Below the pieces are notes generated by a model, which saw nothing but the letters and a program-made list of their open reading frames with translations, was not told the DNA's origin and searched no databases. A stretch of 64,000 nucleotides of DNA, from positions 124,001 to 188,000 of the forward strand of contig NZ_JAGQBH010000003.1 of the NCBI RefSeq assembly GCF_024345535.1. Reading direction: 5' to 3'. Made by a program: the position numbers and the translations under genes. Positions 25,340-28,977 of the stretch are shown here, piece after piece. The stretch comes from Cyanobium sp. N.Huapi 1H5. Lineage in GTDB: Bacteria > Cyanobacteriota > Cyanobacteriia > PCC-6307 > Cyanobiaceae. The stretch's first letter is position 1. Each line of letters starts with the position of its first letter.

Positions 25340-27496
25340 ATGCGTCACCTCTCCAGGGGTTCGGTGAATCAGCTCAGCATCAAATCCAAGCTGATCCTGA
25401 TGCTGCTTCTGGTGAGTGGTTTTTCCACCCTCTTCTCCGCCGCCCTGGGCTATCGCAGTGGCCAGATCAATCTCACTGATCGCGTCTTCAATCAGCTCAC
25501 CAGCGTTCGCGCCTCCAAGGCCTATCAGATTGAGTCCTATTTCCGCACCATCCAGAATCACACCCAGACCCTGAGTGAGGATCTGTCGATCATCGCCGCC
25601 GTTCAGCAGTTCGACGCGGCCTATCGCCAGCTCGCCACCGCCCCCGAGCCGGCCGGGTCCGGGCAGGCGTTAGAGAACTACTACCGCACCCAGTTCCTGC
25701 CGCGCCTCGACAAGACCCATTCCGGCACCCCCAACCTGCCCGCCTATCTCCCCAACGGGAAGGCCACGAGGCACCTCCAGTACAACTACATCGCCGCCAA
25801 CCCCAATCCCGTCGGCAAGAAGCAGCAGCTGGTGGCCGCCACGGACGGCAGCACCTACTCCCAGGTGCATGGCCGCTATCACCCGATCTTCCGCAACATC
25901 GTTGCCAGATTCGGCTACTATGACATGTTCCTGATCAACCCGCAGGGACAGATCGTCTACACCGTTTTCAAGGAAACCGACTACGCCACCAGCCTCCAGA
26001 ACGGCCCCTACAAGGACAGCAACCTCGCCCAGCTGGTGCGTCAGGTGATCGCCTCCAAGGAGAAGGGCTTCACCCAGCTGATCGATTTCGCCGCCTACGC
26101 CCCCTCCTACGGCACCCCCGCCTCCTTCATCGCCGCCCCCATCTACAACGGCTCCACCCTGGTGGGGGTCCTGGCCTTCCAGATGCCCGTCGACGAGATC
26201 AACAACGTCATGACCGGCAACCAGGCCTGGCAGAAGGACGGCCTCGGCGAGTCGGGGGAAACCATCCTGGTGGGCCAGGACACGCTCATGCGCTCCGCCT
26301 CGCGCTTCTACCTGGAGGATCCCAAGGCCTACCTGGCCCAGCTCTCCTCCCGCGGCGTCAAGGACGATGCCATCGCCCGCCTGCGCCAGTACGGCACCAC
26401 GATCCTGCAGCAGCCGGTGGCGACCCCGGCCGTGACCAAAGCGATCGCCGGGGGCAGCGGCACCCAGCAGGTGATCGACTATCGCGGCGTGCCGGTGCTC
26501 AGCTCCTACGCCCCCCTGCAGATCAAGGGCTTCGACTGGGTGATCCTCGCCCAGATGGACCTGGCGGAGGCCTACGCCCCGATCCATGCCTTCCAGAACC
26601 AGATCCTGATCACCGTCACCCTGCTGATCCTGGTGGTCACGGTGCTGGCCATGGCCCTGGCCCATCTGTTCGTCAAGCCGGTGCAGCAGCTGATCGACAG
26701 CGCCCGCAAGGTCTCCTCCGGCGAACTCACCAGCATCCCGGCCCTCCATTCGGGCGATGAATTCGGCGAGCTGGCCCAGTCCTTCAATGCCGTCGTGCAG
26801 AGCCTCCAGACCCAGACGGCCTTGGTCGATCAGAAGAACCAGGAGAACGAGAAGCTCCTGTTCAGCGTCTTCCCCGCCGCCATCGCCCGCCGGCTGCAGC
26901 GCGGCGAAACCCAGATTGCCGAGGAGGTGACCAACGTGGCCGTCCTGTTCGCCGACCTCAAGGGATTCTCCCGGCTCGTCTCCACCCTCAGCGCCCATGA
27001 ATCCCTGGCGATCCTCAACGACCTGGTGGCCTCCTTCGATGATCTGGCCGAACGCTTCGGCCTCGAGAAGGTGAAGACGATCGGCGACAGCTATCTCGCC
27101 GTGTGCGGTCTCTCGGTGCCCTATCTCGACCACGACAAGCGGGCGCTGGATTTCGCCATCGAGATGCTCGGGGTTCTGCGGCGCTTCAACCTGGAGCGGG
27201 GCTTCGACCTCGGCATCCAGATCGGTGTGCACTCCGGCGACATCCTCGCCGGCATCGTCGGCAAGAGCCGGGTCGTCTACGACGTCTGGGGAGAAACGGT
27301 GAAAACGGCCCACCTGCTCAGCCAGGTCTGTCCCTCCGGGGCCGTGCTCGTCTCGGCGGTGGTGCATCGCCGGCTCGAGGACCTCTACCAGTTCGAGCGC
27401 ACCAGCGCGGCCGCGGAGGCCCAGCCCGCCCTGCAGGTCTGGCGGCTCACCAGCACCACCGCGGCGGCGGCGGGCGAGCCGGTCAGCGCCCCATGA
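25340..27496 (+). CDS. Membrane class III nucleotidyl cyclase with cache sensor and HAMP, atypical active site
   Basis: The 718-residue protein has two membrane helices (near 15-35 and 415-440) flanking a large extracytoplasmic cache-like sensor, a HAMP linker and a C-terminal cyclase domain. The metal aspartates are present (D539 in FADLKGF, D583 in TIGDSYL), and the Lys before TIGD and D648 in YDVWG fit ATP selection. In active enzymes the next motif is TVNxAxR. Here it reads TVKTAHL, so the transition-state Asn and Arg are K655 and L659. Activity is therefore doubtful or altered. The stop overlaps the channel start in ATGA. ATG 25340 is preferred over 25232. Confidence 0.8.
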   Translation: MRHLSRGSVNQLSIKSKLILMLLLVSGFSTLFSAALGYRSGQINLTDRVFNQLTSVRASKAYQIESYFRTIQNHTQTLSEDLSIIAAVQQFDAAYRQLATAPEPAGSGQALENYYRTQFLPRLDKTHSGTPNLPAYLPNGKATRHLQYNYIAANPNPVGKKQQLVAATDGSTYSQVHGRYHPIFRNIVARFGYYDMFLINPQGQIVYTVFKETDYATSLQNGPYKDSNLAQLVRQVIASKEKGFTQLIDFAAYAPSYGTPASFIAAPIYNGSTLVGVLAFQMPVDEINNVMTGNQAWQKDGLGESGETILVGQDTLMRSASRFYLEDPKAYLAQLSSRGVKDDAIARLRQYGTTILQQPVATPAVTKAIAGGSGTQQVIDYRGVPVLSSYAPLQIKGFDWVILAQMDLAEAYAPIHAFQNQILITVTLLILVVTVLAMALAHLFVKPVQQLIDSARKVSSGELTSIPALHSGDEFGELAQSFNAVVQSLQTQTALVDQKNQENEKLLFSVFPAAIARRLQRGETQIAEEVTNVAVLFADLKGFSRLVSTLSAHESLAILNDLVASFDDLAERFGLEKVKTIGDSYLAVCGLSVPYLDHDKRALDFAIEMLGVLRRFNLERGFDLGIQIGVHSGDILAGIVGKSRVVYDVWGETVKTAHLLSQVCPSGAVLVSAVVHRRLEDLYQFERTSAAAEAQPALQVWRLTSTTAAAAGEPVSAP

Positions 27497-28977
27497 GCAG
27501 CCCCACCCCCATCTGGCTCTGGGGGATCGGCCTGGCCCTCGGCTTCCCCCTGCTCACGATCCTTCTGGGCGAAGCCATCCACCGGCTCAAGCGGCGGCGG
27601 AGGGCGATCGCCGGCACCGTGCGCCTGGTGCGGGACGTGCTGGTGCCGATGCTGGCGCTGCTGGTCTTCCTGCAGCACCTGCTCCAGGTCGATCCCGGCA
27701 CCCGTCTGTTCCGGACCGTGGAGACGGTGTTCTGGGTGTGCGTGATCCATGCCGCCCTCTCCCTGCTCAACGTGATCCTGTTCGAGCAGGCCGAAGCCGA
27801 CACCTGGCGCTCCCGGGTGCCCAAATTGCTGATCGATCTGGCCCGCCTGTTCCTGATCCTGCTGGGCACCGCCTTCGTGCTGGCCACGGTGTGGAACGCC
27901 GATCTGGCCGGCCTGGTCACCGCCCTGGGGGTGAGCTCGATCGTCATTGGCCTGGCCCTGCAGGACACCCTCGGCAGCGTCATGTCGGGCATCGCCCTGC
28001 TGTTCGAGCGGCCGTTCACGGTGGGCGACTGGCTCGAGGTGGGCGGCGTGGTGGGCCAGGTGATCGACATCAACTGGCGCGCCGTGCGCCTGCTCACCCT
28101 GGAGCAGGAGATGGTGGTGATTCCCCACAAGCTGATCAGCAGCGAGGTGATCCGCAACTTCACCAAACCCACCCCGATCCACGCCGAGCGGATCCAGATC
28201 GGCTTCTCCTACAACGATCCCCCCAACCTGGCCCGGCAGGTGCTCAAGAGCACGGCCCTGGAAACCAAGGGGATCCTGCTGGATCCCGAGCCCGATGTGT
28301 TCACCCTCGCCTATGCCGATTCCGCTGTCACCTATGAGGTGAAGTTCTTCATCCGTGACTACGGCGAGATCGAGCAGATCCGCGAACGTTTCATGACCCG
28401 GGTGTGGTACGCGGCCAAACGCAACAATCTCTCCATCCCCTTCCCGATCCGCACCGTCTACAACTTCCACGGCCCCACGAGCCAGCAGAAGGGCCTCGCC
28501 AAGAAGTTCAGTGAAAGCCTGCAGGCCATCCCCTCCTACGTGCCGATCAACCGGGAGGACGACAGCGTCACCCCCTCCGCCTCCGGCATTTCCCTGCAGC
28601 ATTTCGCCGCCGGCGAAAAGGTGATCCGCCAGGGCCAGATGGGCAACGCCCTCTACATCATCGTGGCCGGTCAGGCCCTGATGACCCGACGCGATGGGAC
28701 CGGCGAGGATCGCGAACTGCTGTCCCTCAGAAGCGGGGAATTCTTCGGGGAGATGAGTCTGTTTTCCGGCGAACCCAGCGCCGTCACGATCGCGGCCAGC
28801 AACGACCTGGAGGTGATGAAGATCTCCGCCACGGTGGTCAATCAGATGATCGACCGCCAGCCCAGCTTCGCCCGCGAGATCGGCCAGATCCTCGAGAGCC
28901 GCCGCCTGGCCATCCAGGAGACCACCCAGGCCCAGACCCAGGCCCCCTTCGGCAGCCCGGAACCTGGCCTGATGTGA
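27493..28977 (+). CDS. MscS-like channel with C-terminal cyclic-nucleotide-binding domain
   Basis: The 494-residue protein has four predicted membrane helices, then the MscS pore helix and beta domain (SSIVIGLALQDTLGSVMSGI, FTVGDWLEVGGVVGQVIDIN, VVIPHKLISSEVIRNF). The cyclic-nucleotide-binding fold lies at about 366-470 (FAAGEKVIRQGQMGNALYII, GEFFGEMSLFSGEP). This is the bCNG architecture. The phosphate-binding cassette keeps FGE, but the Arg expected after GEP is S429. A Gln/Ala/Pro-rich tail ends the protein. ATG 27493 overlaps the cyclase stop by four bases, so sensor and channel are made together. Confidence 0.88.
   Translation: MSSPTPIWLWGIGLALGFPLLTILLGEAIHRLKRRRRAIAGTVRLVRDVLVPMLALLVFLQHLLQVDPGTRLFRTVETVFWVCVIHAALSLLNVILFEQAEADTWRSRVPKLLIDLARLFLILLGTAFVLATVWNADLAGLVTALGVSSIVIGLALQDTLGSVMSGIALLFERPFTVGDWLEVGGVVGQVIDINWRAVRLLTLEQEMVVIPHKLISSEVIRNFTKPTPIHAERIQIGFSYNDPPNLARQVLKSTALETKGILLDPEPDVFTLAYADSAVTYEVKFFIRDYGEIEQIRERFMTRVWYAAKRNNLSIPFPIRTVYNFHGPTSQQKGLAKKFSESLQAIPSYVPINREDDSVTPSASGISLQHFAAGEKVIRQGQMGNALYIIVAGQALMTRRDGTGEDRELLSLRSGEFFGEMSLFSGEPSAVTIAASNDLEVMKISATVVNQMIDRQPSFAREIGQILESRRLAIQETTQAQTQAPFGSPEPGLM

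What the first reader, a model, noticed from the sequence alone, without database searches (positions are those of the whole stretch)
25340..28977. Coupled cyclase and cyclic-nucleotide-domain MscS channel, both missing key ligand residues
Seen: an ATGA overlap joins a cache-HAMP class III cyclase to an MscS channel with a cyclic-nucleotide-binding domain, implying one sensory circuit. The cyclase keeps both metal Asp and the Lys/Asp purine pair but has K655 and L659 where Asn and Arg stabilise the transition state. The channel's phosphate cassette has FGE but S429 in place of the conserved Arg. Loss of partner residues in both suggests a different second messenger, or parallel decay into a non-catalytic sensor pair.
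Basis: partly seen in the sequence, partly recalled or inferred. Interest (0 to 1): 0.75.

Follow-up and report, generated by a model that had tools for sequence, protein, structure and literature searches.

The report
Cyclase-like sensor paired with ion channel
A two-gene module of cyanobacteria couples a membrane sensor with a cyclase-like output to an ion channel with a cyclic-nucleotide-type domain; both have lost residues that the textbook cAMP/cGMP pathway needs, yet they stay together and under selection, which suggests that the parts of a second-messenger circuit were put to another use.

Summary
Genes 25340-27496 (dCache-HAMP-class III cyclase) and 27493-28977 (MscS core plus CNBD) overlap by ATGA. 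The cyclase keeps D539, D583, K579, D648 but has K655/L659 for Asn/Arg; the channel has FGE but S429 for Arg. This is no strain mutation: in 75 deduplicated cyanobacterial receptors the channel gene follows in 73. Channel Arg: 0 of 72 (Ser in 67), against 30 of 31 other MscS-CNBD channels of the same family. Cyclase Arg: 0 of 32 in the window's clade; Lys for Asn in 12 of 12 of its subclade. Other branches lost metal Asps too; 15 of 75 keep all six residues, yet their channels (14 seen) also lack Arg. Both altered domains are under purifying selection (dN/dS about 0.12-0.13). Best reading: a nucleotide-binding, probably non-cyclising receptor wired to a channel whose CNBD no longer reads cAMP/cGMP classically, by contact or another ligand. 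New variant of known parts; no biochemistry available.

The parts
25340..27496 (+). membrane receptor gene: dCache-HAMP-class III cyclase-like protein, 718 aa
   Evidence: the cyclase part of a model of mean pLDDT 70 matches solved class III cyclases (TMt up to 0.89)
25913..26545 (+). dCache_1-like sensor domain, aa 192-402
   Evidence: Pfam 41.9 bits, under the curated cut-off of 45
26657..26809 (+). HAMP domain, aa 440-490
   Evidence: Pfam 48.6 bits
26921..27397 (+). class III cyclase-like domain, aa 528-686
   Evidence: Pfam 135.9 bits
26954..26956 (+). metal Asp D539, kept
   Evidence: 12/12 in the window's subclade, 25/32 in its clade
27074..27076 (+). purine Lys K579, kept
   Evidence: 32/32 in its clade
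27086..27088 (+). metal Asp D583, kept
   Evidence: 32/32
27281..27283 (+). purine Asp D648, kept
   Evidence: 32/32
27302..27304 (+). K655 in place of the transition-state Asn
   Evidence: Lys in 12/12 of the subclade, Asn in 20/20 of the rest of the clade
27314..27316 (+). L659 in place of the transition-state Arg
   Evidence: Arg in 0/32 of the clade
27493..28977 (+). channel gene: MscS core plus CNBD, 494 aa
27493..27496 (+). ATGA stop/start overlap of the two genes
27964..28437 (+). MscS beta domain and C-terminal domain, aa 158-315
   Evidence: Pfam MS_channel_2nd and MS_channel_3rd; dN/dS of aa 136-330 0.053
28597..28857 (+). cyclic-nucleotide-binding-type domain, aa 369-455
   Evidence: Pfam cNMP_binding 67.7 bits; CRP-type fold matches on a low-confidence model
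28750..28752 (+). E420 of the FGE motif, kept
   Evidence: Glu in 63 of 72 pair channels
28777..28779 (+). S429 in place of the phosphate-binding Arg
   Evidence: Ser in 67 of 72, Arg in 0 of 72 pair channels; Arg in 30 of 31 other MscS-CNBD channels

Best explanation
A dedicated two-gene sensory unit. The Cache-type domain senses an unknown periplasmic signal and passes it through HAMP to a cyclase-fold dimer. In the window's protein that domain still looks able to bind a metal-nucleotide (both Asps, Lys and Asp kept) but lacks the residues that stabilise the cyclisation transition state, so it probably binds a nucleotide without turning it over, or turns it over very poorly. The channel is translated from the overlapping next gene and is controlled by this receptor without a classical cAMP/cGMP signal: by direct contact with the cyclase-fold output, with the Ser-type CNBD as docking or relay domain, or with that CNBD bound to a different ligand. 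Shown: the residues, their conservation, the gene pairing, selection, and the uncoupling of cyclase state from CNBD state. Inferred: nucleotide binding, lack of turnover, contact, channel gating.
For: Channel gene downstream on the same strand in 73 of 75 receptor loci, within 500 bases in 71 and within 100 in 56; no other neighbour seen in more than 10 (ORFs of 110 aa or more in up to 6 kb of flank, less where contigs end). Pairing survives loss of catalytic residues: of the 75 receptors 15 have all six, 3 have only the Arg changed outside the window's clade (L170, L174, L205), 32 form the window's clade without Arg (7 of them also without D539), and 25 have lost at least one metal Asp and more; ten other cyclases that one search found in genomes of the family have all six. 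CNBD Arg in 0 of 72; beside complete cyclases in 0 of 14, and 6 of these 14 have lost the FGE Glu too, so the classical ligand seems not to be the link. Ser429 is one of 15 among 96 CNBD positions conserved in at least 85% of rows. Control: Arg in 30 of 31 other MscS-CNBD channels. Purifying selection on both altered domains, 11 genomes. The window's genome has a second MscS-CNBD/cyclase pair, and there Arg (channel) and Asn and Arg (cyclase) are kept. In three loci where the same sensor half carries an MCP output (L185, L186, L212) no channel was found.
Against: No assay, no expression data, no model of a complex. Loss of Asn alone need not abolish activity: Ma1120 has Ala there and works, and its A164N mutant is worse (PMC4215837, passages). 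A cyclase next to a CNBD effector is just what a diffusible-messenger circuit looks like, and such circuits are real (PMC3770947, abstract). E420 is kept in 63 of 72 channels, as if something ribose-like still binds. Invariance of D583, K579 and D648 in 32 rows is not overwhelming, since 44 of 166 domain positions are invariant there; in the subclade 114 of 166 are, so K655 being fixed says little. L178 has a degraded cyclase and no channel nearby. Adjacency does not prove contact. Both structure models are weak (mean pLDDT 70 and 61).
Confidence: 0.5

Rival explanations
1. A different second messenger: the cyclase makes an unusual product (Lys655 taking over phosphate contacts) and the Ser-type CNBD is its matched receptor.
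For: Lys655 fixed in 12 of 12 while positions 656-659 vary; metals and base pair kept; Ser429 conserved as if selected. Precedent for a CNB pocket that lost its Arg and changed ligand: trypanosomatid PKA regulatory subunits bind nucleoside analogues, not cAMP (PMC11006142, passages; PMC6440977, abstract).
Against: The Ser-type CNBD sits beside complete, Arg-less and metal-less cyclases alike, so it is not matched to one product chemistry; the most degraded cyclases should make no product and still keep the channel. Most positions of the subclade are invariant anyway (114 of 166).
Confidence: 0.2
2. Ordinary but weak cAMP/cGMP synthesis; the substitutions are tolerated and the CNBD still binds the product through E420 and backbone contacts.
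For: Metal Asps, K579 and D648 all kept in the subclade; Asn is dispensable in Ma1120; E420 kept in 63 of 72.
Against: Both Asn and Arg are gone, and the C-terminal Lys segment too in 11 of 12; Arg absent in 72 of 72 channels; Glu also lost beside 6 of 14 complete cyclases.
Confidence: 0.14
3. Half of a heterodimer: the receptor supplies the metal site, like mammalian C1, and another cyclase supplies Asn and Arg.
For: The best-scoring solved sequence is AC9, whose first (C1) half also has Leu at the Arg position in the printed alignment; fungal RGC2-cat and NeoR-cat are inactive alone and active together (PMC12264004, passages).
Against: The four other cyclases found in the genome all have both metal Asps and Asn/Arg by eye; none is the metal-less, Asn/Arg-bearing type, and they are of other architectures, three CHASE2 and one AAA/TPR. 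Relatives without metal ligands would need yet another explanation.
Confidence: 0.1
4. Strain-specific mutation or pseudogene decay.
For: A few distant relatives have frameshifts, in-frame stops or an interruption (L151, L152, L175, L201).
Against: The changes are conserved over 12 to 72 sequences and the genes are under purifying selection.
Confidence: 0.03

Closest known systems
bCNG channels (MscS superfamily with a cyclic-nucleotide-binding domain; Caldwell 2010 and Malcolm 2012 seen only as entries in the reference list of PMC4560390)
   Same: MscS core plus C-terminal CNBD
   Different: Ser for the phosphate-binding Arg in 67 of 72 and Arg in none; paired with a Cache-HAMP cyclase-like receptor
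Class III adenylyl/guanylyl cyclases (nearest solved by sequence: AC9; by fold also Rv1625c and the bacterial 5o5l)
   Same: fold, both metal Asps, purine Lys and Asp
   Different: Lys for Asn and Leu for Arg; more residues lost in sister clades
XC_0250/XC_0249 (cyclase linked to a cNMP-binding effector; PMC3770947, abstract)
   Same: adjacent cyclase and CNB effector
   Different: there cGMP is made and bound; here the ligand residues of both are changed and the effector is a channel
cAMP-independent PKA regulatory subunits of trypanosomatids (PMC11006142, passages; PMC6440977, abstract)
   Same: CNB domains that lost the phosphate-binding Arg
   Different: eukaryotic kinase subunits that bind nucleoside analogues; only the CNB domain is shared
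adenylate cyclases near MscS channels on marine Synechococcus genomic islands (PMC7522525, passage)
   Same: cyclase in the vicinity of a CNB-type MscS channel in a related group
   Different: called cAMP-regulated there; the passage seen says nothing of the residues

Membership tests
Class III nucleotide cyclase (fold) | Guanylate_cyc domain over cut-off | tested here: met
   135.9 bits against 21.9; fold matches
Class III nucleotide cyclase (catalytic) | two metal Asps | tested here: met
   D539, D583
Class III nucleotide cyclase (catalytic) | Asn-Arg transition-state pair | tested here: not met
   K655, L659; pair present in 10 of 10 outgroup cyclases
Class III nucleotide cyclase (catalytic) | makes a cyclic nucleotide | not testable with these tools
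   needs an assay
MscS superfamily | MS_channel_2nd and MS_channel_3rd domains | tested here: met
   MscS structures by sequence and fold
bCNG channel | MscS core with C-terminal CNBD | tested here: met
bCNG channel | canonical phosphate-binding cassette (FGE...R) | tested here: not met
   FGE kept, Arg is Ser429; Arg in 0 of 72 pair channels and 30 of 31 others
bCNG channel | gated by a cyclic nucleotide | not testable with these tools
   needs electrophysiology
Pycsar anti-phage system | PycC cyclase with a Pycsar effector | tested here: inconclusive
   low-scoring matches over the cyclase domain (38.7 bits) and the CNBD (37.7 bits) only, no cut-off given
C1-like half of a heterodimeric cyclase | metal-less partner with Asn/Arg encoded in the genome | tested here: not met
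   the four other cyclases found all have both metals and Asn/Arg

The most novel reading that the evidence does not exclude
An old cyanobacterial signalling unit in which a cyclase fold has become a nucleotide-binding, non-cyclising relay and a CNBD has swapped cyclic nucleotides for another ligand or for a protein partner, so that an MscS-type channel is opened by a membrane receptor with no diffusible second messenger.
Probability: 0.35. Interest if true: 0.78.

Novelty: new variant of a known kind. Interest (0 to 1): 0.58.

Why it matters
Class III cyclases and CNBDs are read almost automatically as cAMP/cGMP signalling. Here a natural series runs from complete to fully degraded cyclases, beside the same kind of channel with the same changed pocket. 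That makes two open questions directly testable: what orphan CNBDs without the Arg bind, and whether cyclase folds signal without catalysis in bacteria.

Tried and rejected
Strain mutation or pseudogene: rejected by conservation and dN/dS. Heterodimer with another cyclase of the genome: no fitting partner. Pycsar: only domain-level matches. A link to the upstream efflux genes or the downstream phosphoesterase: these neighbours recur only in the nearest relative, L102. Structure of the CNBD pocket: the channel model is too weak (mean pLDDT 61, residues 421-427 under 50), and no coordinates were available to place K655.

Literature: searches showed, in the listings seen (7 to 15 rows of up to 3,138 papers, one row or none), no paper on this pair or on a Ser-type CNBD channel. 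The library is open-access only and the bCNG papers were seen only as references. One listed paper, PMC2447327, holds the phrase 'inactive cyclase domain', but its text on hand is partial and my find there gave nothing.

Trees: the quick LG+G4 tree and the quick mixture tree of the domain with outgroup agree on the window's clade and on the complete clade; the degraded receptors sit on long branches and their order is unsure, so the counts of changes (D539 6, D583 3 or 4, R659 4 or 5) are not a firm number of losses. The channel family itself was not put on a tree.

Rows dropped before counts: of 85 loci (window, L102-L120, L150-L213, L219) nine gave no usable cyclase row (L119 and L213 cut by contig ends; L158 partial; L175 interrupted; L201 frameshifted; L185, L186, L212 with MCP output; L219 channel only) and one was a duplicate, leaving 75; twelve gave no usable channel row (L110, L114, L119, L152, L155, L158, L178, L185, L186, L192, L212, L213) and one was a duplicate, leaving 72. 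The subclade members L018 and L020, seen with Lys655 and no Arg, are not in the 75. The channel control first held 32 rows, of which two were one locus (L067 and L220); 31 remain. I chose those rows from the list; apart from L216 I did not check whether they have cyclase neighbours.
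Full report
What is there. Window 25340-27496 encodes a 718-aa protein with a dCache-type sensor (41.9 bits, under Pfam's cut-off of 45), HAMP and a class III cyclase domain (135.9 bits); 27493-28977 encodes a 494-aa MscS channel with a C-terminal cNMP-binding domain. Stop and start overlap as ATGA. The assignment of these positions to mammalian numbering is recalled; that most cyclases have an Asn-Arg pair for the transition state is said in PMC4215837 (passages), and ten other cyclases of the family's genomes show it in the alignment.

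Is it a strain quirk? No. The receptor found long relatives (E below 1e-150) in 20 of 300 genomes of the family, the window's own included (36 of 300 at E 1e-20 with short matches), matches at E 1e-60 in 28 of 386 genomes across the phylum, and at E 1e-100 in 21 of 61 and 19 of 192 genomes of two other families; a few of these share only the sensor half. Named contigs include Synechococcus sp. BO 8801 (98%), Vulcanococcus limneticus LL (87%), Synechococcus sp. Tobar12-5m-g (64%) and Leptolyngbya sp. FACHB-36 (62%). After removing duplicates and broken rows I aligned 75 receptors and 72 channels.

The cyclase series. In the window's subclade (12 rows) D539, D583, K579, D648 and K655 are invariant while position 659 is Gly, Ser, Ala or Leu. 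In the rest of its clade (20 rows) Asn655 is kept, 659 is Ala in 17, and D539 is lost in 7. A sister clade (17 rows) is DDKDNR in 15. One row (L170) is DDKDNK. The remaining 25 rows have each lost at least one metal Asp and other residues. All ten outgroup cyclases are DDKDNR. So the canonical state is most likely ancestral and was eroded stepwise; the trees need 6 changes at D539, 3 or 4 at D583 and 4 or 5 at R659, with the caveat of long branches. The complete sister clade is not quite standard either: its 17 rows have Arg or Gln where the window has Gly542.

The channel. Arg at position 429 is found in 0 of 72 pair channels, Ser in 67, whatever the state of the cyclase. Beside the 14 channels whose neighbour is DDKDNR there is no Arg either, and 6 of these 14 have also lost the Glu of FGE. 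As control, 31 other MscS-CNBD channels from the window's genome (3) and other genomes of its family (28) have Arg in 30 and Glu in 31; the one exception, L217, is in the window's genome and has Tyr. Ser429 is one of the 15 of 96 CNBD positions conserved in at least 85% of the rows.

One unit, and alive. The channel gene lies downstream on the same strand in 73 of 75 receptor loci, within 500 bases in 71 and within 100 in 56; four of the 73 channels are split or cut by a contig end (L110, L114, L152, L192). The next most frequent neighbour occurs in 10. Among 11 genomes of the subclade the median dN/dS over 55 pairs is 0.146 (Cache), 0.139 (HAMP), 0.127 (cyclase), 0.224 (channel N-terminal part), 0.053 (MscS core) and 0.123 (CNBD; 47 of 55 pairs usable).

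Inside the same genome there is a contrast: contig 1 carries another pair in reverse order, an MscS-CNBD channel with PRSATV followed by a CHASE2-cyclase with VNCAARL. The four other cyclases of the genome (three CHASE2, one AAA/TPR) all have both metals, Asn and Arg by eye.

How it most likely works. The receptor's cyclase fold has kept what binds a metal-nucleotide and dropped what cyclises it; the channel's CNBD has dropped the residue that holds the cyclic phosphate. Because the pairing outlives catalysis, and because the CNBD change is independent of the state of the cyclase, the simplest account is a receptor that acts on its co-translated channel directly or through another ligand. Precedents exist for each half: a non-catalytic, regulatory nucleotide site in a class III cyclase heterodimer (PMC12264004, passages) and CNB domains without the Arg that bind nucleoside analogues instead of cAMP (PMC11006142, passages; PMC6440977, abstract). 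Against this stand the lack of any assay, the activity of Ma1120 without the Asn, the retained Glu420, and the fact that gene pairing alone would fit a diffusible messenger equally well.

Comparison. The parts are known: class III cyclase fold, MscS core, CNBD (bCNG channels). A cyclase near a CNB-type MscS channel has been noted on marine Synechococcus islands (PMC7522525, passage). In the searches named under Tried and rejected I saw no paper on the changed residues. I file it as a new variant of a known kind: it fails the Asn-Arg test for a catalytic class III cyclase and the Arg test for a canonical CNBD, while fold membership is met.

A second look corrected three things: the control holds 31 distinct channels, not 32, and is of 'other', not 'unpaired', channels; the Lys segment is lost in 11, not 12, of 12; and the globin and MCP variants were scanned in all loci where I name them.

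Noticed in passing
L179-L184, L199, L209-L211: In ten loci the receptor has a C-terminal Globin domain behind a degraded cyclase domain (10 of 10 scanned), and a PBP_like_2-type substrate-binding protein gene (Pfam checked in L209, the others by likeness) follows the channel, a three-gene unit.
   Followed up: partly
L108, L109, L111 (upstream, divergent), L115 (downstream), L152 (upstream, same strand): A beta-carbonic anhydrase-like gene lies beside the pair in five of 75 loci from three clades and in three arrangements (Pfam checked in L152, the others by likeness, a short match in L109); a possible hint to CO2/bicarbonate.
   Followed up: partly
L216:169-4181 (own genome, contig 1): A second MscS-CNBD/cyclase pair in the window's genome, reverse order, CHASE2 sensor; channel Arg and cyclase Asn and Arg kept.
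   Followed up: yes
L185, L186, L212: The same sensor half with an MCP signalling domain as output, and no channel found in the fetched stretch.
   Followed up: partly
L217:2031-3524 (own genome, contig 5): Another MscS-CNBD channel with Tyr in place of the cassette Arg.
   Followed up: no
L175: Receptor gene interrupted inside the cyclase domain by about 1 kb.
   Followed up: no
17 receptors of the complete clade (L169, L171-L174, L191-L197, L202-L205, L207): They keep the six classical residues (15 of 17) but have Arg or Gln where the window has Gly542 next to the first metal Asp.
   Followed up: no
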